NCBI GenBank assembly: GCA_037179515.1
Contig: JAXCGZ010022658.1
Location: 165,001-229,000, forward strand
Source of the DNA: Halocaridina rubra
Taxonomy: Eukaryota > Arthropoda > Malacostraca > Decapoda > Atyidae
Reading direction: 5' to 3'
Length of the DNA stretch: 64,000 nucleotides
The position numbers were made by a program, and so were the translations under genes. Below are positions 1 through 52,424 of this stretch, in pieces. Positions within the stretch are counted from its first letter, which is position 1, and each line of letters opens with the position of its first letter. The notes beneath the pieces are model-generated. The model saw only the letters and a program-made list of their open reading frames with translations. It was not told the DNA's origin and did not search any database.

Positions 1-141
1 AGGGATTACCAGCCTATTTCTCCCTTATCCATTAAAGTTGGATCTTATAGTACAGGAGTGGTATTCTCTCTTCCTCATTACTAGGCTAAATTTTATAACT
101 AAGGAATTTATTGTTAGGGTTTGAGAACATTTGAAAAATTT

Positions 142-870
142 TGAATCTTGTAAAGAAGAGTAACCCCAAGGTGCTCTCTGGCAGTGGTTTTCAACCTGGA
201 GGTCGCAGGACGATGCCAAAAAAGAATACAAAATAGTATAATGATCGACTTTTGTTTTAAGGCTAAGTCAAAATAATTCTGCTAATAAATTTCAAACAAA
301 TAATAAACTGAATGTTTAAATTTCAGTACATAAAACTTTTTTTTTGTTTGTTACCTTATATTTCATTATTTTACCGTAACTAGTTACAAACCGTTACTCA
401 ACATTAAGAATAAGGCGGGATATGAGAGCTGGGCAGGACAATTGTAACACCATGCAATTTCATAATCTTATTCATTATAGTTCTATAGTGACATTTCATG
501 ATGTCTAATTGTAGCTCGCATATTCCAAAACCTTATATTCATTTCATCTAATGTAAAACCAAAAAGTAATAAATGTTTACTCTACAATGAGTGTATTTTT
601 AATATTTATCTTATCATATTTGTAGTTATGTCGTTACGATCCAGGGCATAGGCATGTACTGTGTGCGTGTCAGAAGCACTTCAGGGGAAAGCAGGGGGGG
701 GGGGGGGGGCACGAGTCTCTACTAATATTGTTAGGGGGTCACGTGCCAAAAAGGTTGATAACCACTTTCTATGGTAATCCATAGTTACAAGGCAAGACAC
801 CTAACCTAGCCATTAAAGAGGTTATTTAACTTTACATGGGGTTCTGGAGGTTAAGTATCTTTACAAGATC
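142..870 (+). mobile_element. MITE family 1, copy interrupted by a hAT MITE
   Basis: The family has terminal inverted repeats close to GGATCTTGTAAAGAAGAGTA and ends in the complement, with an interior rich in CCTAACC motifs. Here the left end is at 142-181 and the rest at 768-870, split by the hAT element. The right-arm partner is the copy at 52045-52190, so this insertion predates the arm duplication. Confidence 0.8.
182..767. mobile_element. Non-autonomous hAT element
   Basis: The ends are CAGTGGTTTTCAACCT at 182-197 and AGGTTGATAACCACT at 752-766, the standard hAT-type terminal inverted repeat. Flanks TCTCTGG (175-181) and TCTATGG (768-774) agree at 6 of 7 bases and fit the 8-bp target duplication typical of hAT. 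No transposase is visible in the 586 bp. A G-run lies near 696-709. The right arm copy of the host MITE lacks this insertion. Confidence 0.85.
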
Positions 871-1089
871 AAAATTTTTATGATAATCAATGGTATTTAT
901 TTCTTGAAAACTGCAAATCACTGCACATCTTAGAGAGTCCATTACGTTTGTAAGTTAAGTCATACTTTATGCCAATCTGTACTTGTCAAACTCAATGCCC
1001 GTACACACACATCTGATCCATTACTGCAAGTGACTTGCCACTGCAGTATCATTACTTATCCTTATCCCAGTTTAGGAAAATATCTGGGT

Positions 1090-1440
1090 AAATGTATGAT
1101 TCTGTCTTGCTTTCCATCGGCAGTAAAACAGCAGGATATAAATGGCATGAGTGGGTTTTGAAGATATACGGCACAGTCTTACTGCCCCATCTACTGGACT
1201 CGTCAGTAAAGCACACGACTAATTCCACGGCTGTAAGGCACACTTATGGTCCAATCTTGCCCTTCAACAAACAAAATCATGAGTTAAGCAGGTGGGTAGA
1301 CTAATTCTATGCCCCCAAGCCGTTTTCTACTACACATCACCCTAAAAGTAATAAATAGTACATACAGCATAAATAAGACATATCGATAGGCTCACCTCAA
1401 ACCAATTTCAATTTTACAATTATCTCTGGCAGATGCAATA
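1090..1440 (+). pseudogene. Left-arm counterpart of the 51.6-kb exon-like block
   Basis: The sequence aligns with the reverse complement of 51500-51780, including a shared stretch reading AAATGGCATGAGTG and the segment ACTGGACTCGTCA. The frame that is open in the right arm is broken here by substitutions and an extra stretch of about 50 bases (1230-1280). If the right-arm block is an exon, this is its dead copy; otherwise both are conserved noncoding sequence. Confidence 0.35.
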
Positions 1441-1489
1441 TCTAAGGTGAAATAAATCATACCCTTGTAAGCGTGTAACAATTACTTCC

Positions 1490-1558
1490 CATTATGGGGG
1501 TGGACACAGACAGACTGCAGCTGGACAATCAAAGCTGGATGCCCTTCCAATATAAAGA
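1490..1558 (-). mobile_element. SINE-A, 3' fragment
   Basis: The recurring SINE 3' body is visible (GGGGGTGGACACAGACAGAC, then AAGCTGGATGCCCTTCC). It mirrors the copy at 51378-51465. Confidence 0.7.
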
Positions 1559-1640
1559 ATCTTTTTAGGAAAAGCAAAAAGCTTTTATCAAGTTCTGTCC
1601 CATTTTCAAAGGATTATTTTGTATCTTTACAAAAAAAAGT

Positions 1641-1830
1641 GGATCTTGTAATGGTAAGTAAGCCCCTGAGCCCCATGTAAAGTTAAATAACCCAGTAAAT
1701 AGGAAAGTTAGATTAAATTAAGTCAGAGTAGGTTATATTAGCTTAGACTGGGTTGGCTTGGGTTACTTGACTTGCAATGTAACTAAGAATAACCCTAAAA
1801 GCACCATGGGATTAATCGTCTTTATCAGAC
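1641..1830 (-). mobile_element. MITE family 1, copy
   Basis: It begins GGATCTTGTAATGGTAAGTA and ends near ATCGTCTTTATCAGACC, with GGTTAGATTA-type motifs inside. The right-arm partner at 51083-51288 is inverted. Confidence 0.75.
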
Positions 1831-2189
1831 CAAAATTATTATCACATAACTGTTGTTCAATACACTTGTAGCAGCACAGGATGATTAAACTCAGTGTTAT
1901 CTTGAGATAAGCAAGCCTTCCAGACCACAGACCTGTAGTGCAAAATTTACCCAATAAATCTTTACCTCAAAACAGTATGGCCCTTAAGATCAGCATTTCT
2001 AATACTGACCTCAACAACTATGAGCTAAATACAGGCAGTTCTAAAAAGTTATACTACAACGACATGCCAATATTATCCAGAGTACAAATAGAAGATATCC
2101 CCGGCATCCAGAGACAGGGAAAAATTCCTGAGACGTACTCAAGTTTTCTTAGAGAATTAGCTTCATACAACTGTAGTGTATTAAGTGTC

Positions 2190-2345
2190 AAAATTAGTCC
2201 CCATGAATAGAGGTGGACACACACAGACTGGAGCTGGTGGAGTAAGGCTGGATGCCCTTCCTAACATACGGGGATGGTCTCAAATCCCAGTTAGTTGCCT
2301 CCCAATTTGCTAGCCCTACCAACGAGCAACCGCAGCCCCCAGTGT
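2190..2345 (-). mobile_element. SINE-A copy
   Basis: It shows the GGTGGACACACACAGAC body, the AAGGCTGGATGCCCTTCC block and a decayed tRNA-like head towards 2340. It mirrors the partial copy at 50675-50765. Confidence 0.7.
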
Positions 2346-2888
2346 AATGCAACTGTAATAGCCATAAATATAAAATAATTTTTCTGATCCAAAGAATTAT
2401 AATGTATTTTTCCCAAGAAAGCTCCTTAATTATGTTGATATAAACAACTTTAACAACTTGTTCAGAACTTCTTACTTGTAATAATCTAGGAGAAAATATA
2501 TGTAAAAGCAGCTGCTTACCATAATGGTGTGCCGTATCAATCTCTTTTCATATTAGGATGTCCATATTAGTTCATGTCCCTTTAACAATATGACACTTTT
2601 GAAGTAGTAGTAGTAGACAGATATCCACCCTGAGGGGGTGGACGGGCCATGGTGAGCCCTTAGGTTAGTTGGTTGGTAGCTGGAACAGTTCTGCAAAAAA
2701 TAATGCTAATGTTAGCTAAATCCCCACATTTCAAATGCCACTTCTAAATATGATGATGACACACTTATACGGTATCATACTGTCTTCCTTGGGAACACTT
2801 ATACAGTATCACAATCCTTTATTTTCATATGTTTGTTGATGACTTAAACATACAACATACTCAATGAGAAATACGAGGACCCAATAAG

Positions 2889-3052
2889 GGATCTTGTAAA
2901 GATGACGAACCCCCAGAACCCAAAGTAAAGCTAAATAACCTGCAAATTGTTAGGTGTCGTTAGCTTGGGTTAGGGTGCGTTATGTCAGATGACTTGCTTT
3001 CTAAATATTAATAATCCTACTGTGCTCAGGAGTTACTCCTTTATACAAAATC
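2889..3052 (-). mobile_element. MITE family 1, copy
   Basis: It starts GGATCTTGTAAAGATGACGA and ends GTTACTCCTTTATACAAAATCC, with telomere-like GGTTAGGGT inside. The mirrored partner is at 50074-50229. Confidence 0.75.
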
Positions 3053-3084
3053 CCAATTGAGTATTAAGTTTAAATCAATGATTC

Positions 3085-4045
3085 ATTATCATCGAATTAT
3101 TCGCCTTCTCCCATCAGAGGTTGTCACAGCAGATTAAACATCTCCATATCGCCCTATCCCATCTATCCTCCTCCATCACACTGCACAACCTCATGTCCTC
3201 CTTCACCACAGCCATAAACCTGCTTTTTGGCCTGCCACTCTCCCACCTGCCTGAGACATCCAACCTCAGCAGCCTCTGCCAACATACTCTTCACCCCGCC
3301 TCGGCAGTCACACTGCCCTCATATATATCTTGCACCACCTTCACATACTTCTCTGCTACTCACAACTTCCCCATGCAATACCAAAATTTTCTTGCACCAT
3401 CCAGTCATACGTCTATACTAAATCCACAAATACACTATGCAACTCCTCCTTGTCTATTCTATGCTTCTCCATAAGCATTCTCAAAGCAAATACTGCATCT
3501 GTAGCTTTCCTTCCTGGCATAACAACATATTGTTGTTCACAAATCCTCACAACTCCTCTCAGTCTAGCTTCCCTTATCCTTTCTCATTTAATTCATGCTG
3601 TGGCTTATTAACTTTATGTCTCTGTAATTGCTACATCTCTGTACATCTCCCTTGATCTTAAATTATTGGCAACGCAATACATTTTCGACTCCCAAGAATT
3701 TGTTAAACAATCTGGTTAAAATCCCCATTGCTATCTCTCCCAAACATCTCAATCCTCGCCATAACTGTCCTCACTTCCTCCTAAATGATCCACTTCACTT
3801 CCAGTACCACTATCTCCATGTTATCTATCCGTCTCTCTCTCTCTTATTTTCTTCATTCATTAGATTCTCAAAATACTCCCTCCACCTTCTCAGCACAAAC
3901 TCCTCACTTTTCAGCATATATCCATCAGTATCCTCTATCAGCCTAAGCTGATTCACTTCCTTCCCTGTTCGGTTCGTCTGTCTGACCAATCAGTACAAGT
4001 CTTTTTCTCCTTCCATTGTGATTAACTTCTCCTACACCTCACCAT
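3085..4045 (-). pseudogene. RTE-like LINE fragment (reverse transcriptase remnant)
   Basis: On the minus strand, decayed translation gives RTE-type reverse-transcriptase pieces: a linker before RT, a GRKATDAVFALRMLMEKHRI-like segment and a C-terminal VVKEDM-like tail, ending near 3090 with CTGATGGGAGAAGG. The middle of the RT domain is deleted. Many stops and shifts are present and no function is expected. It is the mirror partner of the longer copy at 48235-50030, so it was present before the arm duplication. A short (CT)6 run at 3832-3844 corresponds to the large (GA)n array in that partner. Confidence 0.75.
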
Positions 4046-4127
4046 TCTTAGACTATAAGATTTTATTGATATAATGTTGAAATCGAGTGTATAAAAGATG
4101 ATTGCACCATTTTATATGAAGCAATAA

Positions 4128-4275
4128 GTTCCCATTCGAATGGGGGGTGGACATAAACATGTTAGAGCAGCGGGGATTAAGGCTGGATGTCCCTTCCTAA
4201 CTCACTAGAAAAAGGGTTTGAATCTGCGTTAGTTGCTTCCTGAATCTTGCACTCTACCACTGGGCTACCACGATC
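4128..4275 (-). mobile_element. SINE-A copy
   Basis: GGGGTGGACATAAACATG body and TAAGGCTGGATG block, with a tRNA-like B-box and A-box region running towards 4270. Mirror of 47988-48152. Confidence 0.7.
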
Positions 4276-4769
4276 TTCTCTACGTTATGCAAGATTATCA
4301 GAAGTATAAGTAATAGCATTAAGCAACATTATCAAAACATGGTATTTAACTTCATATTAGTGTGGCATTTACGGTAACCAACTTCTCATTATACAGACTT
4401 TCTTGTTGAAATATATCAGATTACAAAAATGTACTTTAATACCTAAAGAACAAATTTTATTAGTTATTGCTGTTACTTTTGTGTGAAGTCTATTGGGACA
4501 TTTACATTATAGCTTACATGTCTTTAGATGATAATATTTATTGACAATATTTTATATATAAGAATCATTTTAGATAGATTATTTAGTAAGGTTAGGTTGG
4601 ACTGAGATTACTATGATAGGTTAGATAAGGGTGCAATACACTAAAAGAGTCACGTAGCTTAGTGGCTCAAGTGGCCGCGACTTAATATTCTAAAACATTA
4701 ATTGCAAACAATTAACCAATCAATACATACTCATATGCTAATGCACCAAAGCAACAGAAATTAAATGCA

Positions 4770-5215
4770 TTTACACACATGGCAATACCACCTGACTGGA
4801 CCTACATTGGAAGCGTCTTTGCTATACGTCCACCTTCCGGAGTGCCAAATCACAAGAGGATCAGTAAAAAGAGGTCAAACTGCCAAAACCAATCTCTATC
4901 AGAACCTGGCAGAACCTTCCGTCACCCTCATTTCTCAACACAACATAAACGACAAGGTTTTCTACCCTGAGAAATGACTCTTTCCTGGTCATTTCTCCAT
5001 GCCAGAGATATTGAGAGCAACCCAGGAAACACATTATGGAAAACTGCACCATACACAGCCACATACACCACCAACACACCATACACTCCCTAAGAACCCT
5101 GTGCAAAACCCCAAGACTGGCAATGGCATTCCATAGGGACTCAGGGCACTTCGGACTGGCAGCTTTGGGAACAATAGCCACCACCACTACCTGACTGGAT
5201 CGAGGCGATTTAAAA
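4770..5215 (+). repeat. Unclassified block conserved between arms (left copy)
   Basis: About 445 bp starting near ATACCACCTGACTGGACCTA, matching the reverse complement of 46700-47150 along its length. On the minus strand a 120-codon frame (5223-4861) shares a 59-residue stretch with the plus strand of the right copy, but both break soon after, and opposite-strand frames are also partly shared. I do not recognise a family. It may be a decayed exon or part of an old element. Confidence 0.6.
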
Positions 5216-5459
5216 GGACCCATTTAAAGGTGAGAAAAGCGAATTGTAAAAAAATTTGAAGTTTTGTCATACAAACTACAAGTTATACATTACAATAAAT
5301 TCAAAACTGGCTCATGAAATGTGGTCATCTAATGCCTTTCTCTTACTTTACTGGATATATTAGGAATATTAAAGTTTTATCCTAAATATGTAAATGTTTT
5401 AAACAACATACAATCATTTACTGCATGCTAGTATTATTGTTGTTTGCTGCTTCATGTGT
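5216..5459 (+). other. Single-copy sequence conserved with the right arm
   Basis: No gene or element is visible. Bases 5271-5315 match 46636-46592 at 43 of 45 positions, the best short identity I counted between the arms. Confidence 0.7.
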
Positions 5460-5565
5460 CATTATTAATCCCCACTATGGGGGTGAACACAGATAGTTTA
5501 AAGCTGGAGAATTAACACCAGATATCATTCCATATGCACTATGGTGAACTTGATCATGTGGTTCC
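5460..5565 (-). mobile_element. SINE-A copy, decayed
   Basis: CCCACTATGGGGGTGAACAC body followed by a degraded tRNA-like region. Mirror of the better-preserved copy at 46312-46452. Confidence 0.65.
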
Positions 5566-5854
5566 CATTACTATATACTGTACTCAATATGATGTTAATT
5601 CAATGTGTGAAAATTTGGATTTCTGCATGCAAACGAGTATGTATTTCTGGGATTATATTTAGGCTTGAAATCTAAAATCAAAACTAATTCTTATAAGCAT
5701 TAATTGTTTGTATGGATGTGAATATGATATGAACTCCCATCACACACAAAATAAATAAAAACACTGTACTTCCATATACATTACATACACAAGGATCGTA
5801 ATCCACCTTGACTCAGTGCACACATTAAAGAGAAAACAAACTTACCATGATCAC

Positions 5855-5912
5855 TCCTCATAGCTCCTTGGGGAAAAAGAGTTGCCACACTTCTCCCCAG
5901 TGGGCATGGATC
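5855..5912 (-). repeat. Short dispersed repeat D, fragment
   Basis: On the minus strand it reads GTGTGGCAACTCTTTTTCCC then CAAGGAGCT, like 38785-38965 and 52425-52595. A short open frame ending in a stop followed by GGTAAGT could suggest a terminal exon, but the repeat relationship makes that weak. Confidence 0.4.
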
Positions 5913-6257
5913 TTCTTCAGCGACTCAAAGTGCGCAATATTACACTTGTCCCACTTTAATAAAACATCCAAAATATCAAAGTGAAAATACATAAAAAAAT
6001 AGTAGAATATGCTTATCCATATATGCATTACTACAAGGTTCCAAGTTTGTAATATGAAACAACAAAAACCATACTAAGAGTCGCAATTATCATATCAAGG
6101 TTAAAGAAAATTATAATAATAGAATGTTATCACCTTTCCCTTTGGGTGCAAAGCATATTTAGCACTAAACTACTGATGTCTTTCACAAAAGCAATAAACA
6201 GTACTCATTCAACATGCCTACTGGAGTATTATAATTTTTTTCTTTTTACTTGACACT

Positions 6258-6410
6258 ACTGTTCCCCAGTAAAGGGGGGACTCAGATTGGTAAAGGAGAA
6301 TTAAGGCTGGATGCTCTCCCTAAAACATCACTGTGGACTTGATCGTGGGTCTGTCAGCTTCTGAGTAGAGTAATTCAGTCTCAGTGCTACCACTGTTCCA
6401 AGGAGTCTTA
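6258..6410 (-). mobile_element. SINE-A copy
   Basis: GGAGAATTAAGGCTGGATGC block with a decayed tRNA-like head near 6330-6400. Mirror of 43345-43500. Confidence 0.7.
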
Positions 6411-6460
6411 GACCCTCTACAACAAAAACACTGTAACCCATATTAAAATAAATAACTCTC

Positions 6461-6571
6461 TAAACAATCTTTTAAAAATGAATAATCCCACAACTACCTT
6501 GTAATAAGAGTTAAGTTGGTTAAAGAGTAGCCCTGGGGTTACTATACTTTACAAGATTCAATTAGATTTCA
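6461..6571 (-). mobile_element. MITE family 1, shortened copy
   Basis: Starts AATCTTTTAAAAATGAATAA and ends GGGGTTACTATACTTTACAA. The interior is shortened. It lies opposite the MITE at 43057-43266. Confidence 0.6.
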
Positions 6572-6784
6572 ACTCTCTATACCTTAATACAATTTAGGAT
6601 AATGCCTGTACACAGCACAGTTGTCCTACTCCTTACGCAACTGTCAGTAATGCGATTTTCAACAAACGTTGTCGGAAAATTGGAAAAAATAATATTCAAA
6701 CCAATTTCCCTGAAAAACACAATACAGTGACTACTGTACAGTTCTTAGCTAAATGTTTATATGTTTTATTATGCTACTATTACA

Positions 6785-6912
6785 GTATTTCCCATTATGA
6801 TGGTGGACACAGACAGAGTGGAGCTTGGGAATTATGGTAATATGCCCTTCCTAACGCTCTGAGATGGGTTCGCTCAGGTCTGTCACCTCCCGAGTCTACG
6901 CTACCCGTAGTC
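6785..6912 (-). mobile_element. SINE-A copy
   Basis: TTCCCATTATGATGGTGGAC body and CCCTTCCTAACGC block. No clear mirror copy was found, so it may be a left-arm insertion. Confidence 0.65.
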
Positions 6913-6967
6913 CCAGATTATATGTACAGTATATTATACTGTAACATATTTTTCAATATAAAATTTG

Positions 6968-7125
6968 GAAGGAGTAAATAGGAATAACTACCAGAACATC
7001 AAATAACCCAATAAATTTTAGGTTAGCTAAGTTAGGTTGGTTTAGGCATTAACCGTAAGTTACCATAACATAACAATTTACAGGACTATTTAATGTTCTG
7101 GGGATTACTCATCTTTACAAGATCC
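6968..7125. mobile_element. MITE family 1, copy
   Basis: Ends in GGGGATTACTCATCTTTACA with AGATCC, preceded by GGTTAGCTAAGTTAGGTTGG. The left terminus is degraded. Confidence 0.65.
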
Positions 7126-7282
7126 AGAAAAATAAATAAACACAAAACTAAAAACAGATCAACAGGACACATAACTCAAATGAAATCTATCTTAAGTAAT
7201 ACGTGAGTCAAACCTCTTCCAGCAATTTTAACTGTAATCAAATCTACACATTATTATTATGTACAGTATTTCTAATGTTGGA

Positions 7283-7395
7283 TTTCATCTGTTTTGGTAG
7301 CAGTCATATCAGTTGTGCACATCTCTTTTGCTTGGCACGTTCTCACTCAATTTTTCCCCTTTTTCTGCAAATTATACCCAAGATGTCTATAAACT
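7283..7395 (+). mobile_element. Fragment of the piggyBac-like 5' region
   Basis: Closely matches 12640-12730, the leader of the piggyBac-like element, through the shared CAAATTATACCCAAGATGTC ending in the start codon. The coding part is lost a few codons later. No TTAA-bounded ends are visible. Confidence 0.6.
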
Positions 7396-7495
7396 CCATC
7401 CTGCTATAAAAGTACACTGAGAATATAGTTTACATCAAAATTCACTCATTATTTAACGGCCAATTGTGAATGAAAATTAAGTGAAACAAATTTTT

Positions 7496-7611
7496 GGATC
7501 TTGTAAAGATGAGTAACCCCAGAACCCAATGTCAAGTTACATACCCCAGTATATAAATAGGACAGATAATGTAACCCCAGCAACCCGGAGTTGCCCTTCT
7601 TCACAATATCC
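7496..7611 (-). mobile_element. MITE family 1, short copy
   Basis: GGATCTTGTAAAGATGAGTA start and a CTTCTTCACAATATCC end. The interior is about 70 bp shorter than in other copies. Confidence 0.65.
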
Positions 7612-7910
7612 AAATTTCTTTCAAAACATTCTGGGACTGTCTCGAGTTACACAGATATGAATAAAATCTGCTATATAATAAAAAAGTATAATACTTACAT
7701 AAATCATTGCCCAATACAGTTAGGGTAACTCTATAAAGAATTAAGTTTTGAATGTAACTATGATATAGAAATAAAGGACTATAAACAGTCACCTCTCCAT
7801 TTACGCAAGTTAAGACTACGCGAATTTGGATTAGCAGGTAATCAAAATGATAAGTAAAAAACTTTGAACTGTGTGATTAGCGCAAGCGAGAAAAAATGAG
7901 GCGTAAGTAG

Positions 7911-8319
7911 AAGAAAAATGGACCTATTGACCACTAAATAGAGCTTGTGCCTTTGTTTGCAGAGTGGTCGGTCAGTATTCTCTACAAAATGGGATTTTCA
8001 CCCTTTTTGGAGTGCTTTTACTACATAAGTGATTGTTGTAGTAATACAACAATGATTTATAACTCTCTCTCTCTCTCTCTCTCTATATCGATCGATCAAT
8101 CAATAGACAGATAGATAAATTAATAAATCAATCAATCAATCAATAAATAGAGAGAGAGAGTGAGAGTCAAAAACCATTATTATACTAGTACAACAATGAC
8201 TTATGTGAAAAAATCATTCCAATTAGTGTGAAAATCCCATTTAGTAGAGGGTACTGACCAACCACACAGCAAACAAAGGCACAAGCTCTGGTTAATGGCC
8301 ATTAAGTCCATTTTTCACT
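7911..8319. repeat. Foldback element with a CT/GA core
   Basis: The left arm 7911-8070 and right arm 8160-8319 are inverted copies: GAGCTTGTGCCTTTGTTTGC on the left has its complement near 8270-8290, and AAATGGGATTTTCAC is mirrored by GTGAAAATCCCATTT. The core is (CT)n, then GATA/AATC-type short repeats, then (GA)n. No reading frame is present. It could form a long hairpin. Confidence 0.75.
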
Positions 8320-8887
8320 GAATAATCCAGTCAAAAAGTTGTTATGGCTTAGCATCATGATCACCGCCACCACACATCTGTTGTCCATCATATAAAGAGC
8401 GAGTTAATTTGTTTATTTTTTTCTTTGTTTGTACAGTGTTCCCCCGGTTATTTGCATTTCTTGGTTCGCGTTCTCACTGTATCATGCGTTTTTTTTTTTT
8501 ATAAATTATTATTTTATTTTATGGGTATATGCAAAAATATTAAAATATTAAAAAAAAAAATTCTCAGTATTTTCTTTTTTTTTATTGAAAAATACATATT
8601 TCATTATCTAATTGATGAAAAAAAATATTTCCCAGCCTACGAATAATAAAACAGTAAAAATTAGTAAAAAACATAAATTCTAGATAGATAAGTTTATTGA
8701 CCACCTCTTTTGAAAAGTACAGTATAATCTTTACAAAAGGAATATTTGGTCCAAATTACAATGAATAAATACAATAGATTTTGTAAAATCATCAAATAAG
8801 TAAATGAATTTTAAATTAATATACATTGTACTAATAACTGAATGATATACGTACGTACAGTATAACTTACAGTATTGCATCATGCGA

Positions 8888-9421
8888 AATAGTGTTCGAT
8901 AGCGTACAATGTATTGGGGTCGCAGCTACGTGAGCTAGCATATATATTTATATTTCCAGTAGTTTCATGATTTTATTGATAAAAAAACGTATTTATTAGC
9001 CTAAGAATAATAAAACAGTAAAAAATAGTAAAAAACATAAATACTAACAGTATTGCAACATGTAAAATACGATACCGCTATCAGCGTTTCGGACAAAGAC
9101 TCGTTCAGTCTAACTCACGTGTGCGCCGTTCACGTTGTGCTTATTAAACGTTTTGCTTGTGTTCGATAGCGTACAATGTATTGGGGTTGCAGCTACGTGA
9201 GCTAGCATATATATTTATACTTCCAGTAGTTTCATGATTTTATTTGATAAAAAAAAATGTAAAATATAGAAAAAAACATAAATACTAACAGTATTGCAAC
9301 ATGTAAAATAAGATACTGCTATCAGCGTTTCGTACAAAGCCTTCCACCATCTTCCATTGTCTCGCCTCACTCGTGTGCGCCATTCACGTTGTGCTTATTA
9401 TTATTAATGTTTTGCTTGTGA
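8888..9421 (+). repeat. Tandem duplication of about 270 bp inside the Tigger element
   Basis: Both units start GTGTTCGATAGCGTACAATG and end near CGTTGTGCTTATTA. A third partial unit is suggested at 8620-8690 by the shared AATAATAAAACAGTAAAAA. Confidence 0.75.
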
Positions 9422-9450
9422 TTTTTTACTGGCATATTTTAACCTTTGCA

Positions 9451-9600
9451 ATGCCTCCCAAGCATCCTTCATCTTCTAAGGCTTCTTGTAGTGAGCATAA
9501 GCGGCAAAGGAAAATGTTAACCATTGTAGATAAAGTGAAACTCTTAGATATGTTGAAAGAAGGAAAAAAGTTTGTGGATGTCGGCCGCTATTTTACGTAA
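9451..9600 (+). pseudogene. Tigger transposase N-terminus, truncated
   Basis: The ATG at 9451 opens 49 codons beginning MPPKHPSS and containing KRQRKMLTIVDKVKLLDML, the basic start of the CENP-B-like N-terminal helix-turn-helix of Tigger transposases. It stops right after the first helices. The DNA-binding HTH_Tnp, CENPB and DDE domains are absent, so it cannot be an active transposase. Confidence 0.65.
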
Positions 9601-9879
9601 ACGTAAAAATTATTGCAAAATACTGTACCTATGTATGTCACGTCATCATCACCTCATTCACGGTAAGTTTTCCTATCACTTTCAAAAAAAATTACGTTGC
9701 TTGCTGTTATTTATAATGTAAAGGGTGTTTTTTTAACAGTACAGGGAGGGTTTATACAGTGTAAACGTAAAAATACATTAAAATATCTATGTACATATAG
9801 GCTGATCCTACTCCGCGGTTTTCCTGGTTCGCGCCGGGTCCCGGAACCGAACTACCGCGAAAAGGGGGGTAACACTGTA

Positions 9880-41165: not shown

Positions 41166-41569
41166 GTTATGGATGGATGCAATGTCAGTCAATATCCAGT
41201 CTTAGCATGTATTTTCTCTCATTTTAGACTCCGTGGGATTAGAGAACTGATATCTTTTCTGTTTTACACAAAGGTAACTTACACATGGATGGATGTTGAG
41301 AAGGTAAAACATGGTGTTACTCGAGTGCGCAATCCTCTTCCTGTATTGATATATGTTTATCAGAAGTAGGACAGTTGCACGATTTCCCTTAAAACAACAA
41401 CCCACAAGGACAATTGCTCCTTCAGTATTTGTACCTTAGCTATTTTCGCACCTCATCTATTACTAATCCAATCTTAATTTCATATCCATCATTATATCCT
41501 AATTATATATTTCACCTTAGTATAATCAAGGGGTAAGTGCCCGTTTTTGCATCAAGAGTTGGAGACTAT
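41166..41569. other. Unannotated right-arm sequence
   Basis: Between two conserved blocks. The left arm here is occupied by transposons. Nothing else seen. Confidence 0.45.
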
Positions 41570-42640
41570 TATCCAAGGGATAATCATCCTAGGGTCATTT
41601 GTTCATACCCCATGTCTAATATCACTCGTCCAGTTAGGAAAAACCAGATGAAAGTATATTAGATTAGTTAGGTTTTGCTAGGTTAGTTAGATTATTCTAC
41701 ACCAGTTAAGAAAAGTGGTAATTGAAGTTGTTTAATATTATGATTTTAGATATATCTTTCCCTGAGATGCATTCCGTAATCATGCTCCATGCCATCCTTT
41801 GGCATCTCCTGCAATGTTGTTTGACTTCCACACCTGTAGACTCTGTCTTTCTCATGGAGCTAATCCTCAGCGTCGAGAGGGGGGGGAAGTGCAAAATGGG
41901 CTAAGCATTTTTTCCTTATTTCTAACCCAGGGAAGCAACAAAGCTTCCAGCTGCTTTAATTGTCTGTCAAGATAAGAAAATCCTGACAGTGAGGTGTAAA
42001 TTTGTGAAAGTAAGCATTTATCCCTATATTTTTACCCAAGAAAAAAACATGGAGGCAGACCTGGTGTGAGCCCATGGCCACATAATATTGAGGACATAGC
42101 ATTTCTTTTATGAGTGACACTGGGATGGGCAAAGAAAAAGGACGTCATTGGGCCAGGGATCAAGAAAATGATGATAAAAAAAAATGATATTGAGATGGGA
42201 AGCATTGTGACTTGTCGAATGTGAGAAGATAACAAGAGATGTATAATGGATTTGTCAGAAAACTTGGTGTACTTGTAGGCCTTGGAAAAGAACTGTAACT
42301 GAAGGTAAACTTATTACTGAGCTGTCGTGGACAGTCTTATTTAAGTCCAAAAGACCTTAAGTTGTAGCATAGCAATGGGCTGTTGATGCCATTGGCTAAG
42401 CTACCATTTGCATCTGGTTTTGCATAGCAAGGCCTCATTATCGTATAGCGGATTTTAATGCATGTATATTAGGGTTTTTAAAATCCACCAACCCAAAACG
42501 TGCTAGCTTTTGGAGAATATACTGGTTTTAAAATGCTGTAAGTTGATTCAGGTAAACATGATTTATGGGTCTACACTTTCACTTGAGAAAACTTCCATCT
42601 TAGCTTAAAGTAACTTATACTTAAAATTGCTAATCGTCGC
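41570..42640 (-). repeat. Conserved arm block, right copy
   Basis: Partner of 11500-12310. CTTGAGAAAACTTCCATCTT (42582-42601) is mirrored at 11567-11586. Confidence 0.65.
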
Positions 42641-42645
42641 AGTTT

Positions 42646-42785
42646 GGATCTTGTAAAGAAGAGTATCAGCATGGGTGCTAACTTTACTTAACAAGCTAAC
42701 CTAAGCTGGATTTCTTTATAAGTTAGTATACGGGATCATTTAGCTTCACATGGGGTTCTATTGATTAAGCATTTTTACAAGAACC
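42646..42785 (+). mobile_element. MITE family 1, copy
   Basis: GGATCTTGTAAAGAAGAGTA start. The end is near AAGCATTTTTACAAGAACCC. No mirrored copy sits at the matching left-arm site, so it may be right-arm specific. Confidence 0.7.
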
Positions 42786-43056
42786 CATATTTTGATAGTG
42801 TCAAATTACCCATACTTGTGGTATAGTATGCTTTTGACGCTAGTACCAGAAAACAGTGAAATGAACTTTTGTCTCCATTTGAAAATTCTACATGTGATAA
42901 AGAGATCTTTTTAGTATCTTGGCATATTGTTTTCATTCTTCATGTAAGTCTAAATTAATTTGATTGATTTAGGGCTAGCATCATATTTTGAAATATTTGA
43001 GTAATGTATGGCCGTTGTTGGTAACATTAAATATACTGCAACTTTGAAATGCATTT

Positions 43057-43266
43057 GGAACATGCAAAGAAGAAAAACCCTACTGTGCTCTAGAGTTATT
43101 AATAATAACAAGGCATGTCACCTAATATTAGCGAGCCTAACCTAATCATTTATGGGGTTATATAAATTATCAGGGTTTATTAGGGTAGGTTAGGTTAATG
43201 CCTAGCGAAACCCAAGTAACCTAACAATTTATGGGGTTATTTAATGCTCTCTTGTTTACACTTATT
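43057..43266 (+). mobile_element. MITE family 1, decayed copy
   Basis: AAAGAAGAAAAACCCTACTG start and GGTTATTTAATGCTCTC region, with two CCTAACC tracts. Opposite 6461-6571. Confidence 0.6.
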
Positions 43267-43344
43267 TACTCTTTCTATTTCTTACATTATAGGCATTGGA
43301 TGACTTGGCATTTGTTACTGTGTAATATACATATAATTGGGGAT

Positions 43345-43500
43345 CAGGTAATGTAATGGTCAGAATACTTTACTTGGGAGGTGACAGACTTGTAGCCGAG
43401 TCCACCACGGAGCAATAGAAATTGCATCATACCCTAATTCCCCAGCTTCTCTCTGTCTATGTCCACTCCCATTATGTGGAATAATAGTGGCAAGAAATAT
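43345..43500 (+). mobile_element. SINE-A copy
   Basis: Head GGTAATGTAATGGTCAGAAT, body CCTAATTCCCCAGCTTCTCT, end CCACTCCCATTATG. Mirror of 6258-6410. Confidence 0.7.
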
Positions 43501-44561
43501 AAACATTAATCTGTAAACATTACTGTAGTTTCTCTAATATATTTTCTCTGGGATATTGTTCTTAATTTTAATTTTTTCTTATTTTCCAACAGCGTACTAT
43601 CAAAATTACATTATTGAAATTGCGAAAGTAGTGGGACAACCATACTTTGTACACAGGCAGTGTCCTAAATTTTATTTTCACCTTGTTAAGTTGAGGGAAT
43701 TGAACTTAATTGTACAGGGACTCCTCGGGTTACAATGTCCTTGACTTATGATGTTTCGTTGTTATGATGCATCTCCCATAAACTATTAATAAATAATTTT
43801 TTCAACCTGCATAGTTTGTGTCGTAAATACAAATTTCTCTTGCTGAACAGGTTGTTGAGTGTGGCAGAAGAGTACATCATCATGTGGCATTGTTATGTGC
43901 GAATATATCAAATTAATGTTTTTATTTATTTATTTGTGTATGTATTTAGGTATGCTAAGGACCGAGTTTGAATTTATTAACAAAATTACCACATACATAG
44001 TCGTATATATGCTCTTCATGCAGAACAGTTTGTTGAGCGTAGTGGAAGAATACATCGCCGTGTGGCATTGTTGTGTACATATATATCATGTTAATGGTTT
44101 TATTTATTTATTTATTTACCTATTTATGTATTTGGTTGTGTGAAGGATATACAGGTATACCTCACCCAACGTTGTTAATTGGTTCCAAGAGAGACGACTT
44201 AAATCGAATTAACTTGTCCCTAGGCTAGCCTAGATATACAGATTTACTGTCCAGTAAACAAATTAATGAACTCTATTATGCCGTTGGCAACAGGCTTAGC
44301 ATGGGACGTGCATGGTGGCCAGTGTTGCCAGATAAAGCGGATGTTTTTATTTTCAAATGTATGGTACATTTTAAGATATATATTAATTACAAGATGGTAG
44401 TACTGTAATTAAAATAAAAATGTACTTCATCTTTAAGATACTTGAAATAACTTACCAGCTTACATGTATGTTTTTTATATTTGTCATTTCTCTCATTCAT
44501 GTATTCTGGCAACACTGATGGTGGCAGTGAGGAAGAAGATGCATACGTTTTGTCACACTTT

Positions 44562-45033
44562 CGTATCAGCTGATGCGCCCGCACACGCTATTTCCCTGAC
44601 AATATAATATTAAAAATATGTTTGTTGTTTGTTCTTAATGCTTTTTTCAATTTTCTTCATAATATCCGATCGCATTAAGCTGTAGAAGAGGAGTAGGATG
44701 CGGGAGAACGAACCTCTATCGGCAAACGTTTTGCTACTTCCGTATCAGCTGATGCACCCTCACACGCTATTTCCCTGACGATATTATATTAAAAATATGT
44801 TTGCTGTTTGTTCTTAATGCTTTTATTCAATTTTCTTCATAATATCCGATTGCATTAAGCGGTAGAAGAGGAGTAGGATGCGGGAGAACTAACCTCTATC
44901 GGCAAACGTTTTGCTACTTCCGTATCAGCTGATGCACCCTCACACGCTATTTCCCTGACAATATTATATTAAAAATAACTTTGCTGCTTGTTCTTAATGC
45001 TTTTTATCAATTTTCTTCATAATATCCGATCAT
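44562..45033. repeat. Tandem array, 179-180-bp unit
   Basis: Units start at 44562, 44741 and 44921. The third is incomplete, ending about AATATCCGATC. Confidence 0.85.
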
Positions 45034-45102
45034 AGCCAGTTTATCGTCCAGCGTTATAGCATGACTCTTAGCACTTGCACTAGGAATTTTCTTAGGTGCC
45101 AT
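45025..45102 (-). pseudogene. Tigger transposase N-terminus, truncated
   Basis: From ATG at 45102: MAPKKIPSASAKSHAITLDD followed by KLAMI, the basic start and first helix of a pogo/Tigger helix-turn-helix, then the tandem repeats. No catalytic domain. Confidence 0.6.
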
Positions 45103-45766
45103 GGGGGCAAAATATAAGGTCACAAGTGAATGAGAATGAGAGTAGCGGATAAACAGACGTATACTGTGCATAAACTAATCAATTCATAACAATAACGGTT
45201 TCGCGGGAATGACAAGTGACGACGCCTAATGGTAGATATTGGAACTACTGTACGTATTTTAATAAGATTTTATATGCTTTTATTCTTATTTATTGTACAA
45301 TAACATGATTTTATGTGCTTTTGTTTTTATTTATTGTACAGTAACATGATTTCATGTGCTTTTAATGGTTTTCTAGTGATATTATGATTCCAATATTTGT
45401 AGCGGACAGATGTAAAGTTGATTATAATGATGTAAACTTTATTTTTATTTATTTTTTTATTTTTCCATATATCTTTTTGAAAACCGACGTATAATCAAGA
45501 ATGACTTAACTCAAAACGACTTAAGCCGAGGTATACCTGTAGTTTGAATATATTTACAAAATAACCAAATACATGTACATAGTCGTAAACATGAACTTCG
45601 CCCTTGGAACAGTTTGTTGAGCATAGCAAAGAATACGTTGTAACACGGCTTTAAACTGAGGAAGAAGTTTCACCCAGTTCCCGCTCATACGCCATAGTGT
45701 TCTTTTGCTCATTCTTTCTTTGGTTTGTTTTGCTCGTGTGTGCGATAGTTTTTGGCCTGTATTATG

Positions 45767-45850
45767 CCTACCATGTGTATAGGAGATTCTTCTGCTGGCA
45801 ATGCCCTGAAGAAAAGGAAAGCCATCACCCTGTATCATATATACACAAGA
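45767..45850 (+). pseudogene. Tigger transposase N-terminus, truncated
   Basis: MPTMCIGDSSAGNALKKRKA then ITL; the frame becomes unrelated after about 25 codons. It resembles the start of the 13.2-15.6 kb Tigger (GDSSDVSADKKRKAITMEI). Confidence 0.55.
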
Positions 45851-45901
45851 TACAGGGATATTTTTATTTTTGTTTTGTTATTGGAGCTCTTTTTATATTC
45901 T

Positions 45902-45920
45902 AACCCATTAAGAGTAAATG
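45902..45920. repeat. Target-site duplication, left of SINE-B
   Basis: AACCCATTAAGAGTAAATG; the partner at 46114-46132 differs at one base. Confidence 0.88.
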
Positions 45921-46113
45921 TTCGGTTTTACGTCACGGACTCCCTTTTCTACCAAGGACTAGGATGGTTGCCTTCTTGCGAAGGACTTGTTTTGGCAGAT
46001 GTAATCGCTACCCTGAGTGCATGCACTTGCTAACCTCAGACCATGACGGGGCGCGAACCCCCAATCTGACACCTCAGAGTCGCGGACGTTACCGCTTGAG
46101 CCACGGTGACTAC
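45921..46113 (-). mobile_element. SINE-B copy 4 with target duplication
   Basis: 193 bp, minus strand, bounded by a 19-bp duplication with one mismatch, showing it moved by LINE-type retrotransposition. A-box CACCGTGGCTCAAGCGG and B-box near GGGGGTTCGCGCCCC on the minus strand. Unlike copies 1-3 it has no AT repeat next to it. Confidence 0.9.
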
Positions 46114-46311
46114 AACCCATTAAAAGTAAATGATTATAAGAATTAGTTTAGTATTTAGATATGAAACTTATTCATAAACACAAAATTACATACTTGTACG
46201 GTTTAGCTTTCAAGCTTATTCTTAAACACAAAGGTACATAACTTGTATGCATACAGAATTCTAAATTTTCACTAAAAGTGAATAGCCCTCATATATAGTA
46301 TACAGTAAATT

Positions 46312-46452
46312 GGGATTGCTGTAATGCAGGAGTTAGAGCACTCGACTTCGGAAGTGACAAACCCTGAAATCGATCCCACCGCAGTGCATTTGGAATGGCA
46401 TCTAGCCTTAATTTCCCAGTTTCAACCTCTGTTGGGGATATCTAGTGACTCA
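46312..46452 (+). mobile_element. SINE-A copy
   Basis: Head GCAGGAGTTAGAGCACTCGA and GAAATCGATCCCACC B-box, body AGCCTTAATTTCCCAG. Mirror of 5460-5565. Confidence 0.75.
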
Positions 46453-46699
46453 TAAAATGGCAAGCAACAATATCAAGACCATAATGTAAATAAATTTTTG
46501 CATATTTGAAGCATTGACCGTTTAGACAGAACAATAATATTCTAAATATGTCCAGTATTGTTACAGAAGGCCATAAGTTTGACCTTGTTTTATGAGCCAG
46601 TTTTGAATTTATTATAATGGATAACTTGTAGTTTGTGTTGCAAGCTCAAAATGTGTTCATATTTGGCTTTGCTCACCCTCTTTCAAAATGTCATTTTAA

Positions 46700-47150
46700 A
46701 ATGCCATGAACCCGTCAGGTTGTGGTTGTGATTGTTGTTCCCAAAGCTCCCTGTCCAATGATCCCTGAGTCCCTAAGGAGTGCCACAGCCAGAGTCGGGC
46801 TTTCCCACAGGTTGTTCAGGGAGTCTATGGTGCGTTGGTGGCGTATGTGGTGGTGTACGGTGCAGTTTTCAATAATATATTTCCTGGGATACTATCAGTG
46901 ATTCCAGCTAGAAGAAGTCTTGGTGAAATCACTGTCAAAGGGTCATTGTCGGTGTAGGAAAAATTTGTTTTGTGTTGTGTGTTGTAGGTGAGGGTGACAG
47001 AAGGTTCGGCCAAGTTCTAGTGGCCTGTGTGAGGCAGAGGTTTTTTTATGTCAGTTTGGCCTCTTACTAATCCTTTTGTGATTTGGAACTCCAGTGAGTG
47101 GACCTGTACCAAAGATGCTGCCACTCTAGGTCCAGTCAGGTGGTATTTCC
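46700..47150 (-). repeat. Unclassified block conserved between arms (right copy)
   Basis: Partner of 4770-5215. Plus-strand translation has an open stretch of about 59 codons from 46722 similar to the left copy minus strand, then stops. Confidence 0.6.
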
Positions 47151-47612
47151 TTGTACATCCGAATACATTTGACTTGTGCTGTATTACTGCATTAGCAGAT
47201 GAGTAGCTATTTATTGGTTATTTCTTTTTAATTAATGCTTTGAAATATTAACACTCTGTTGTGCTGCTTTAGACTGCAGGCTACCAAACTATTTGTGGTC
47301 TATTGTAACCTAACTTAAGCAAACTAACCTAATGTAACCTAACCAATTTTCCATGATGATTCATATATATAAAAAAATTCACTAAATATTTTTGCCGAGG
47401 ACACTTAAGTTTTAATGTAAATATCCCGCTAGACATCATACTAAAGTAGCACCAATAACTTTCGAATAGAATTTGTTCTTTAAGTACTAAAGTTTATATA
47501 TGTAATTTAACATATCATTTCAACTAAAAAGTTTGTATTAAATGTAAGTTGGCTTCCAAAGATGCCATATTAATATGAAGTTAAGTACCATGTTCTTAGT
47601 AATCTACTTAAT

Positions 47613-47950
47613 ACGGGATCCTCAATTTACGTCACAGCTCCGTTCCTTAAGATGTGTGGTAACCTGATTTTCTGCTTAAGTTGGAACACACCTAAATCAG
47701 TACCTACGTCATCCACCTGTGCTAACGTAGTAGTAAAGTCTCTCCCATTTCCAAGAGTTTTGCTATCCCTAATTTCACTTCCATGGTGATGGCTTTCCTT
47801 CAGTGCACTGCCATCAGAAAAATCTGCTTTACGCTTGTGAGACATTATACAGGCCATAGACATATTAAAATAAACAAAATAATTTATGGGAGATGCATCG
47901 TGACCACAAAGCATTATAAGTCGAGGACATCGTAAGCCGACCCCTTGTAC
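47613..47950 (-). mobile_element. Tigger-derived MITE with N-terminal coding remnant
   Basis: The right end complement reads GGGGTCGGCTTACGATGTCC, similar to the left end of the Tigger at 43715. A minus-strand frame from 47914 has MSHKRKADFSDGSALKE and then diverges by a shift. A fragment of the same kind is at 12330-12450. Absent from the matching left-arm site (between 4280 and 4330). Confidence 0.55.
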
Positions 47951-47987
47951 TAATAGTAATACTGCTGGTTATCTTTAGCATAGTAGA

Positions 47988-48152
47988 GGGGACCTCAGTT
48001 GGTTAGTGATAGATTGTGAGATTTGAGAAGCAACTAATGTGGATTCGATCCACTGCAGTAGGTTAGGAAGGGCATCCTCCCTTAATTCCCCAGCTCAGAA
48101 ATGTCAGTCTACCCGCAACCTAATGAGAACTAATTGACACATAATATGGTGC
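47988..48152 (+). mobile_element. SINE-A copy
   Basis: TGTGGATTCGATCCACTGCA (B-box) and CCTCCCTTAATTCCCCAGCT body. Mirror of 4128-4275. Confidence 0.75.
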
Positions 48153-48234
48153 ATTAATCTAGGATGCACTCGGATTAAGCAGTAAATACTGGTAATTAAT
48201 ATTTACAGCTTAAGAATAACAAACTATATGAGAA

Positions 48235-50030
<1,796 letters not shown>

Positions 50031-50073
50031 TTTGATACAATGAGAATCATTGCTGAAAACTTTTTTTGGCTCA

Positions 50074-50229
50074 GGATTTGATAAAGAAGAGTAAGCCATG
50101 GTGCTGTAGGGTTATTTACAAGGCAGTCACCTGACCTGATCTCTCCTGACAATATAACCTAAGTTAATAATTTACAAAATTATTTTAGTTTATATGGTAT
50201 TCTGGAGGTTAGTCATCTTTACAAGATCC
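50074..50229 (+). mobile_element. MITE family 1, copy
   Basis: GGATTTGATAAAGAAGAGTA start and TCATCTTTACAAGATCC end. Mirror of 2889-3052. Confidence 0.75.
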
Positions 50230-50674
50230 CACACTTTTGTCCTCCCTGCTTTTGTCATGGAATTTGTTGTACATTTAGGTCATTAAGAAACATATAAAGG
50301 AAAGGAATGTGATACTGTATAAGTGTACTAAAGGAAGGCAATTTGATGCCATTATAAAAAGTGGCATTTTTAAAGTGGAAATAGAAGCATTATGGACAAC
50401 CTATTACCAAAGAGTATGATAAATCCTCTAAAGTTTCATCTTGTTAAAAGAACAGGAGCTAATATGAACTTACTAATATATAAAGAGAATGATACGGCAC
50501 ACTATGATGTTAAGCAGCTGCTTTTAGATATACTGTATTTTCTTCTGGATTATTACAAGGAAGAAGGTTTGAAAAATTTTCAAAACTATTCTTTGGTCCA
50601 GGAAGACCATTTTATGTTTATGACTATTGTAATTGTATTGCTCTGAAGATTTGCTGCAGATCATCTTTAGAGCT

Positions 50675-50765
50675 CTCCAGTCGAAAGGCATCCAGGTTTA
50701 ATCCACCAGCTTAAGTCTGTTTGTGTCCACCTTCATGCATGCAGACTAACTGTGACACATGAGAT
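50675..50765 (+). mobile_element. SINE-A, 3' fragment
   Basis: GGCATCCAGGTTTAATCCAC then TGTTTGTGTCCACCTTC. Mirror of 2190-2345. Confidence 0.65.
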
Positions 50766-51082
50766 GGAGCAATTGTATTGAGTTAGTTTTGTTAACAGGT
50801 AAATTGGAAAAGCTTAAGATATGTTTTCTTCTCTGGGTGCCGGAAATATTTATTATTATTATATTGCATGACATTCACAGGTCATTATAGTTTAACTACT
50901 TACACGTCCATAATATATATTGCTCATGAGAGTTGAGGTTTGCATTGCAAGCACAGAACTTAAGGACTATTTTATTCTGAGGTCAAGATTTATTGAGTAA
51001 ATTCTGTACTATAGCACAGAGATCTTGAAGGCTAGCTTTTCTGAGGCCAACATTGAGTTTTGTCATCCTACTAATATAGTTT

Positions 51083-51288
51083 GGATCTTGTAAAGGAGAG
51101 TAACCCCAGGGTTCTTCTAGGATTATTCATACAAGGAAAATACAGTAACCCAAGCCTACCCAATCTAACCTAACCTAATCCAATGTAAGCTAACCAACCT
51201 AGCCTAACCAAACTTCTCCTAAATTAGAAATTTAAGGGATATTTAAATTTACATGGAGTTCTTGGAGTTACTTATCATTACAAGATCC
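51083..51288 (+). mobile_element. MITE family 1, full copy
   Basis: Good ends (GGATCTTGTAAAGGAGAGTA and complement) and CTAACCTAACCTAATCC inside. Mirror of 1641-1830. Confidence 0.8.
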
Positions 51289-51377
51289 ACCATTGTTTAT
51301 AAAGGATACAAGTTAATCCTATGAGAACGGCACATAGTCTACTAAAAGCTATTGAAATTTCCTAATAAAATTAAATA

Positions 51378-51465
51378 GAAAGGGGATCCAGCCTTAATCC
51401 CCCATCTTCAATCTGTGTCCACCCTCAGAATGGGAATTAATATTGACATAAAATGTTGTATATAG
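51378..51465 (+). mobile_element. SINE-A, 3' fragment
   Basis: GATCCAGCCTTAATCCCCCA and CTGTGTCCACCCTCAGAATG. Mirror of 1490-1558. Confidence 0.7.
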
Positions 51466-51587
51466 GGCCCACTCTTTATAGGGTATGATTTATGTGACTT
51501 TAGACATTACATCTGTCCGAATTAACTGCAACATGAAATGATTTTGAGGTGAGCTTATAGATCTGTCTTATTTAAAGCTGACTGTAC

Positions 51588-51780
51588 ATTTTACTTTTAG
51601 GTTGATGTGTGGGAGAAACATCTGAAGAGATGCTGGTGTGCCATGACTGTGGGCAAGGAAGTAGTTTACCCGCCTGCTTAGCTATTAATTCTGCTTCAGT
51701 GACGAGTCCAGTTGTTGGGTCATGAAGACTAATCCATTCTTCTTCCTCACTCACTCATGCCATTTATATACTGCTGTCGT
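51588..51780 (-). CDS. Exon-like open block, unknown product
   Basis: The minus strand is open for about 60 codons from an ACAG at 51770 to a possible donor AAAAGTAAAA near 51588. It reads INGMSEEEEWISLHDPTTGL then VTEAELIAKQAGKLLPC, with ordinary soluble-protein composition unlike nearby repeats. The left-arm partner (1090-1440) has lost the frame. I do not recognise the family. There is no neighbouring exon I can support and the splice sites are weak, so this may be chance. Confidence 0.3.
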
Positions 51781-52044
51781 ATTGGCGACGGAGAGCAAGA
51801 GAGGACCCTGCATTGCCATACAGAACCATACATATACACAGATGTTATTCTGTATTGGGTCAAGAGTAAGTAATTGTATTGCAGAGGTAAGTCACGAGGA
51901 ATTATGTAGAAAATGTGCGTGTGGGTATTGATGTCGTCGAGTACAGGTTGGCATTCAGTGTAAGTAATTTGAAATAGAGTCTTAAAGAAGTGCAGTGATT
52001 TGCAATTTTCCATATTTAAATACCTTTGATTCTCATGAAAATTT

Positions 52045-52190
52045 CGATCTAGTAATAATAACCCCCTAAACTACATGTAAAGTTAAATAACTCTAATAAT
52101 GGTTAGTTTTTTTTTAGGTTAGATTAGGTGACTTGCTCTGTAAATATGAATAACCCAAGAGCACCATGGGGTTACTCTTCTTTACAGAAT
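52045..52190 (-). mobile_element. MITE family 1, copy
   Basis: CGATCTAGTAATAATAACCC start, GGTTACTCTTCTTTACAGAA end. Partner of the hAT-split copy at 142-870, without the hAT insertion. Confidence 0.75.
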
Positions 52191-52424
52191 ACAATAATCT
52201 ATAAGCATTTTTAAACCTTTACTTGGAATTCGTTAGTTATAAAATTTATCCCAGTAGCGAGCTAGAGATAACATGGCACCTGTATTCCCTGTGTTTCTTG
52301 GAATCCAAGTTTAAGGGATAAGGGAGTAATGGGCTGGTAATCCCTTCCTCCCATGATTCATTGCAGAAGGAATATACAAAGGTGGGGGGGATTCCCAGCC
52401 CCTTCATTCAAAAGAACCTTGCCC

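What the first reader, a model, noticed from the sequence alone, without database searches (positions are those of the whole stretch)
1..52345. Large ancient inverted duplication fills most of the window
At least eleven separate blocks in 1-37132 recur in reverse order and orientation in 39123-52345: single-copy sequence, SINEs, MITEs and an RTE fragment. One counted pair agrees at 43 of 45 bases (5271-5315 with 46592-46636) and another 18-base match is exact (12185-12202 with 41683-41700). Many other blocks are visibly more diverged. Such a long inverted pair with a spacer of about 2 kb is unusual outside sex chromosomes and recent segmental duplications, and it can drive instability or give rise to long hairpin RNA.
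Basis: seen in the sequence. Interest (0 to 1): 0.9.

Follow-up and report, generated by a model that had tools for sequence, protein, structure and literature searches.

The report
Old decayed inverted segmental duplication
Most of this stretch of DNA, likely from a decapod crustacean, is made of two mirror-image copies of one segment in which no gene was found; the copies are about 71% alike where they still align and are likely the remains of one very old inverted duplication that later mobile elements likely swelled on one side, a striking but ordinary kind of genome scar.

Summary
The inverted duplication is real. Eleven blocks of 1-37163 align, in reverse order and orientation, with 39088-52345. 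Nine have E of 2e-20 or less and some single-copy sequence; 6374-7568 is wholly repeat-borne and 15598-15730 is weak. Without the 6374 block, 6817 aligned columns are 71.2% identical (K2P 0.368); reversed-sequence controls give 40-51%. 4021 of them have no other match in the window. SINE-like copies sit at mirrored places: of 5 such pairs 3 are strictly reciprocal-best, one is so with a tie, one is not. A young gypsy-type element (LTRs 99.2% alike) and two LINEs lie only in the left arm and make up about 13.6 of the 23.9 kb by which it is longer. No tract is homogenised and no clear codon pattern is seen, so the pair most likely decays neutrally. The hairpin-RNA, instability and sex-chromosome ideas get no support: the longest exact arm-to-arm run is 30 bp. 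A fold-back origin is likely but untested. The host genome could not be searched, so copies elsewhere and the extent left of base 1 are unknown.

The parts
1..37135 (+). Left arm of the inverted duplication; may continue left of base 1
   Evidence: Anti-diagonal chain from 1/52345 to about 37135/39110; inner edge read by eye from the border sequences
39110..52345 (-). Right arm of the inverted duplication
   Evidence: Reverse complement aligns in order with the left arm
37136..39109 (.). Spacer, 1.9-2.0 kb; holds a broken LINE fragment (RT-like words, RTE-like, both by recall) with a repeat at 37424-37740 that recurs at 33007-33320
   Evidence: Left half against right half: no inverted match better than E 0.29 inside it; three-frame translation and tblastx; no Pfam match for 37887-38216
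1..412 (+). Outermost block seen, pairs with 52345-51926; identity 0.71 in about the first 200 columns, 0.47 after
803..3323 (+). Arm block, pairs with 52109-49804; identity 0.716 over 2200 columns
3254..3876 (+). Arm block, pairs with 49213-48585; 0.772; all 552 aligned columns lack another match in the window; RT-like words on the minus strand (recall), no Pfam match
3846..4318 (+). Arm block, pairs with 48411-47948; 0.704
4316..5742 (+). Arm block, pairs with 47614-46134; 0.724
6374..7568 (+). Soft block, pairs with 43869-42711; wholly repeat-borne, 0.567 overall, 0.71-0.75 in 6602-7023
11463..12098 (+). Arm block, pairs with 42691-41987; 0.692
12078..12319 (+). Arm block, pairs with 41804-41566; 0.661; holds the exact 18-mer
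15598..15730 (+). Weak arm block, pairs with 41353-41209; 0.654
22032..22577 (+). Arm block, pairs with 41217-40680; 0.746; carries a mirrored SINE-like copy; 486 of 527 columns have other matches in the window
36729..37163 (+). Innermost block, pairs with 39388-39088; 0.731; homology fades near 37135/39110
7569..11462 (.). About 3.9 kb aligned only in the left arm; on the right the alignment steps from 42711 to 42691 (the outer neighbour is the soft block, so this junction is soft); includes an imperfect 404-bp palindrome
16085..21901 (-). Young LTR retrotransposon (gypsy-type by recall of its domain order) in the left arm, LTRs 16085-16460 and 21526-21901 99.2% identical; the arm blocks on either side of it abut on the right near 41209-41217
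24386..29342 (-). LINE with endonuclease, RT and RNase H domains (I/Jockey-like by recall) and an ORF1 with CCHC-like motifs (by recall; no Pfam match), left arm only
33893..36729 (+). LINE (CR1/L2-like by recall) with a folded-back 5' end, left arm only; near-identical copy at 54176-56805 outside the arms

Best explanation
Bases 1 to about 37135 and about 39110 to 52345 are two reverse-complement copies of one segment, likely born in a single inverted duplication of the fold-back type and since then likely decaying neutrally, without exchange between the arms, while mobile elements likely swelled the left copy. Shown: reverse order and orientation over the blocks, about 71% identity, repeat copies at mirrored places, a young LTR element and two LINEs on one side only, a spacer of 1.9-2.0 kb. 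Inferred: one event; fold-back (a broken end pairing with itself, the loop becoming the spacer) rather than tandem duplication followed by inversion; neutrality; decapod host. Rate-free age: the arm distance, 0.368, is about 46 times the LTR distance (3 of 376, about 0.008) of the element inside the left arm. With an assumed neutral rate of 3e-9 per site per year (recalled, not measured here) the duplication would be roughly 60 million years old.
For: Anti-diagonal chain, best piece E 8.6e-160. Identity 0.691 over all 11 blocks (7927 columns) and 0.712 without the repeat-borne block (6817 columns), controls 0.401-0.510. 4021 of the 6817 columns have no other match in the window at E 1e-3 and are 72.6% identical. 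SINE-like word: of 10 matches 8 have an aligned mirror position, forming 5 mirrored pairs; among the 12 copies compared 3 pairs are strictly reciprocal-best, a fourth with one tie, the fifth in one direction only. MITE-like ends: of 16 matches 15 were looked up, 13 have a mirror position, 6 of these 13 (3 pairs: 1642/51275, 2890/50216, 7497/42772) keep the motif. No clear codon-type periodicity of mismatches (no test made). Identity in 200-column steps is 0.64-0.82 outside the soft blocks, but for one short end piece of 0.61. Young elements on one side only. All 21 sequenced human junctions of this type had an unduplicated spacer, 766-70466 bp, median 3428 (PMC3907307, passages).
Against: No second genome was reached, so one event versus several is untested. 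One of five mirrored SINE-like pairs fails reciprocity, and the 153-bp windows compared include flanks, so part of the mirrored likeness may be flank. Seven of 13 MITE-like ends with a mirror position have no such motif there, and the third kept pair lies in the soft block. One 100-column stretch is more conserved than nearly all shuffles (3 of 500 reach it). About 125 left-arm bases lie in two overlapping blocks and are counted twice. The spacer holds a LINE fragment, so its original size is unknown. In one search the automatic best inverted chain ended in a young 97% LINE pair instead of the true centre, and the best direct chain scored higher (3862 against 2586) because of one 98% LINE pair; its other ten members are repeat, tandem, LTR or LINE matches.
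Confidence: 0.7

Rival explanations
1. The arms are two insertions of one large dispersed element or of viral DNA in opposite orientation.
For: Copy number outside the window is unknown; 2796 of 6817 aligned columns have other matches in the window.
Against: No shared coding capacity was found (limited tests); the arms carry different nested repeat copies at mirrored places; no further copy of the single-copy columns in the window; no match of 803-5742 in phage records (a weak test).
Confidence: 0.08
2. A direct tandem duplication whose one copy was later inverted.
For: Gives the same present-day picture; an inverted pair does not record the order of events.
Against: Needs two events, with an inversion breakpoint close to the inner edge of both copies.
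Confidence: 0.15
3. An assembly artefact joined two loci, or a fold-back read was assembled as real sequence.
For: No read data are available here.
Against: Fold-back reads would give nearly identical arms, not 71%; a random misjoin would hardly leave both homologous ends within 2 kb of each other; no N in the window.
Confidence: 0.04
4. A functional palindrome, for example of a sex-limited chromosome, kept by arm-to-arm gene conversion.
For: Geometry (arms over 13 kb, short spacer) resembles such palindromes.
Against: Arms 71% identical instead of >99.9%; longest exact run 30 bp; no gene found in the arms by the limited tests made.
Confidence: 0.03
5. Chance collinearity of dispersed repeats.
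For: SINE- and MITE-like families recur in the window; block 6374-7568 is wholly repeat-borne.
Against: 4021 aligned columns without any other match in the window, at 72.6%; reversed controls 40-51%.
Confidence: 0.01

Closest known systems
Large inverted duplications formed by fold-back (human, PMC3907307; abstract and other passages seen)
   Same: Inverted copies separated by a short unduplicated spacer (766-70466 bp there, 1.9-2.0 kb here)
   Different: Those are new rearrangements in patients, with duplications of megabases in the table rows seen; this one is at least 13 kb, old and present in an assembly; junction microhomology can no longer be read
Human Y palindromes such as P6 (PMC3723533; passages seen)
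   Same: Long inverted arms, most with an unduplicated spacer
   Different: Arms there >99.9% alike through gene conversion; here about 71%, with no homogenised tract and no gene found
Death of palindrome P8 on the human Y (PMC6790999; abstract and outline seen)
   Same: A palindrome that loses its symmetry
   Different: [quoted passage not shown] here at least partly by insertion of mobile elements into one arm, plus base changes

Membership tests
Inverted segmental duplication | Two copies in reverse order and orientation that include single-copy sequence | tested here: met
   (single-copy within the window)
Inverted segmental duplication | Copies restricted to one or few loci of the genome | not tested
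   The genome search did not answer in six tries
Fold-back inverted duplication | Short unduplicated spacer between the copies | tested here: met
   1.9-2.0 kb without inverted homology better than E 0.29; whether it is single-copy in the genome is untested
Fold-back inverted duplication | Inverted microhomology at the spacer border | not testable with these tools
   At about 29% divergence a signal of 2-8 bp cannot be told from chance
Gene-converting palindrome (sex-chromosome type) | Arms kept nearly identical | tested here: not met
   71.2% identity, longest exact run 30 bp
Gene-converting palindrome (sex-chromosome type) | Genes in the arms | tested here: inconclusive
   Pfam was run on 21 of the 51 ORFs plus two short pieces; the arm hits are mobile-element domains; no clear codon periodicity; spliced genes were not searched for
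Dispersed giant element | Shared coding capacity and defined ends in both copies | tested here: inconclusive
   No shared coding capacity found; the outer end lies beyond base 1, so ends could not be judged

The most novel reading that the evidence does not exclude
A large palindrome that escaped both arm-to-arm conversion and loss for tens of millions of years, leaving a readable clock of neutral decay and mobile-element load on two copies of one locus in the same chromosome; if many such fossils exist in this genome they would give an internal, outgroup-free measure of insertion and deletion rates.
Probability: 0.2. Interest if true: 0.5.

Novelty: new member of a known kind. Interest (0 to 1): 0.3.

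Why it matters
Two copies of what looks like one non-coding locus, side by side, show what insertion and decay did to each since they were equal: the left arm is now about 37 kb, the right about 13 kb. That is a useful natural experiment on genome growth in a repeat-rich animal, but inverted duplications as such are well known.

Tried and rejected
Shared genes in the arms: no Pfam match for the eight arm ORFs among the ten, nor for the two RT-like pieces; no clear codon-type periodicity; a protein search with the arm ORF at 4864-5223 found 2 candidates, none at E 1e-3. Of 272 tblastx pairs between the arms 45 were printed: the eleven strongest belong to the 22963-23698/45919-46112 repeat, which is not on the chain, and most of the rest carry a stop in at least one arm. 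Arm-to-arm hairpin RNA or recombination: longest exact run 30 bp. The 18-mer and the 43-of-45 match as proof: little or nothing above shuffles. Phage records: no match for 803-5742. Viral contigs for the protein at 34091-36559: two pattern matches, none confirmed. Rfam: none at gathering threshold. Literature: no paper of the held library has 'inverted duplication' with 'crustacean' and 'palindrome', none has the six terms; in the listings I recognised no decayed inverted duplication of this sort. That is no proof of absence in print.

The decapod assignment rests on one named hit (Cherax quadricarinatus, 51% identity over 76% of the query; 120 of 2618 hits were listed, most unnamed, several unnamed ones better) and on recall of decapod genome style (AT microsatellites, TTAGG runs). 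Other named hits there are a stork, a turtle and an archaeal metagenome bin at 39-41%.

Full report
Self-comparison of the window shows one anti-diagonal from 1/52345 to about 37135/39110. Eleven blocks follow one another in reverse order and orientation. Over all eleven, 7927 aligned columns are 69.1% identical. Leaving out 6374-7568, which consists wholly of sequence with other matches in the window, 6817 columns are 71.2% identical with K2P 0.368 and ts/tv 0.97; about 125 left-arm bases lie in two overlapping blocks and count twice. Aligning each block with its reversed, non-complemented partner gave 0.401-0.510. A whole-window decoy of the same kind gave 7 hits against 125 at E 0.01 (both counts hold each pair in both directions); the best of the five decoy hits printed has E 2.6e-8.

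How much is single-copy? Of the 6817 columns, 4021 have no other match in the window at E 1e-3 and are 72.6% identical; 2796 have other matches and are 69.2% identical. So the chain is not a chance row of dispersed repeats. Soft spots: 15598-15730 is weak (E 9e-5), only about 200 bases of 1-412 are at arm-typical identity, 22032-22577 has only 41 single-copy columns of 527, and the 6374 block has none of 1110.

They illustrate, they do not prove.

Repeats at mirrored places date the event. A SINE-like word has 10 matches in the window; 8 of them have an aligned mirror position, in 5 mirrored pairs. Among the 12 copies compared (10 matches and 2 decayed mirrors, 153-bp windows that include some flank), three mirrored pairs are each other's best match (0.67, 0.72, 0.67), a fourth is so with one tie (0.64), and the fifth (2244 with about 50691, 0.59) is best in one direction only. 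Of 16 MITE-like ends, 15 were looked up; 13 have a mirror position and 6 of these, 3 pairs, keep the motif, while 7 do not. The shared copies most likely predate the duplication, the others were likely gained or lost since.

Later insertions explain much of the asymmetry, 37.1 kb against 13.2 kb. Only in the left arm lie an LTR element (16085-21901, LTRs 99.2% identical over 376 bp; RT, RNase H and integrase domains), a LINE with endonuclease, RT and RNase H domains (24386-28183, ORF1 up to 29342) and another LINE (33893-36729). Together they make about 13.6 kb of the 23.9 kb difference. The arm blocks on either side of the LTR element, 15598-15730 and 22032-22577, abut in the right arm near 41209-41217, although the first of these is weak. 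The LTR distance (3 of 376, about 0.008) is about 46 times smaller than the arm distance.

Decay looks neutral. There is no clear codon-type periodicity of mismatches (no test made). The 200-column steps outside the soft blocks lie between 0.64 and 0.82, but for one end piece of 0.61, and no tract is homogenised. One 100-column stretch (88 of 100) is more conserved than nearly all shuffles (3 of 500 reach it); I have no explanation for it beyond rate variation. Human Y palindromes, by contrast, have arms >99.9% alike through gene conversion (PMC3723533, passages).

Origin. In all 21 human inverted duplications sequenced at that junction there was a short unduplicated spacer, 766-70466 bp with median 3428, explained by fold-back of a broken end (PMC3907307, passages). 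The spacer here, 1.9-2.0 kb, fits; it contains a broken LINE fragment (by recall of RT-like words, without a Pfam match), so its original size may have been smaller. Tandem duplication followed by inversion cannot be excluded.

Consequences. The longest exact arm-to-arm run in the alignment is 30 bp and only four reach 21 bp. A useful hairpin RNA or arm-to-arm recombination is therefore not expected. Young inverted pairs in the window, such as 17309-17988 with 36723-36045 at 97.5%, would be likelier substrates.

Limits. The host genome did not answer in six tries, so copy number, extent left of base 1 and species were not tested. Pfam was run on 21 of the 51 ORFs plus two short pieces, and spliced genes were not searched for. 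The decapod assignment is a likely guess (and recall).

Noticed in passing
33893-34301: Near-perfect palindrome with almost no loop (398 of 409 positions symmetric) made by the 5' end of a LINE copy folded back on itself; looks like self-priming during insertion rather than ordinary twin priming (inference).
   Followed up: partly
17307-17988: 3' fragment of the same LINE family nested inside the LTR element, 97.5-97.7% identical to 36045-36723 and 56121-56801, ending in the same short tail.
   Followed up: partly
34101-36729 and 54176-56805: Direct pair of LINE copies, 98.4% identical over 2631 columns, 20 kb apart; not at mirrored places, so likely independent insertions.
   Followed up: partly
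7913-8316: Imperfect palindrome of 404 bp (77.8%), likely a fold-back element, in the left-only stretch.
   Followed up: no
22868-23792 and 45919-46112: About 190-bp repeat in alternating orientation between AT microsatellites, with another copy in the right arm that is not on the chain.
   Followed up: no
33378-33451: ARAGORN calls a tRNA-Leu inside a pair of repeats 276 bp apart (33333-33533, 33609-33809); Rfam gave nothing, so possibly a tRNA-like repeat.
   Followed up: no
14051-14446: Fragment of a DDE_1 transposase on the minus strand (Pfam PF03184, E 5.7e-21).
   Followed up: no
29770-29929: Short TTAGG runs in opposite orientations just upstream of the LINE ORF1.
   Followed up: no
44541-45031: Tandem array of a 180-bp unit, 2.7 copies, in a right-arm stretch without a left-arm partner.
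   Followed up: no
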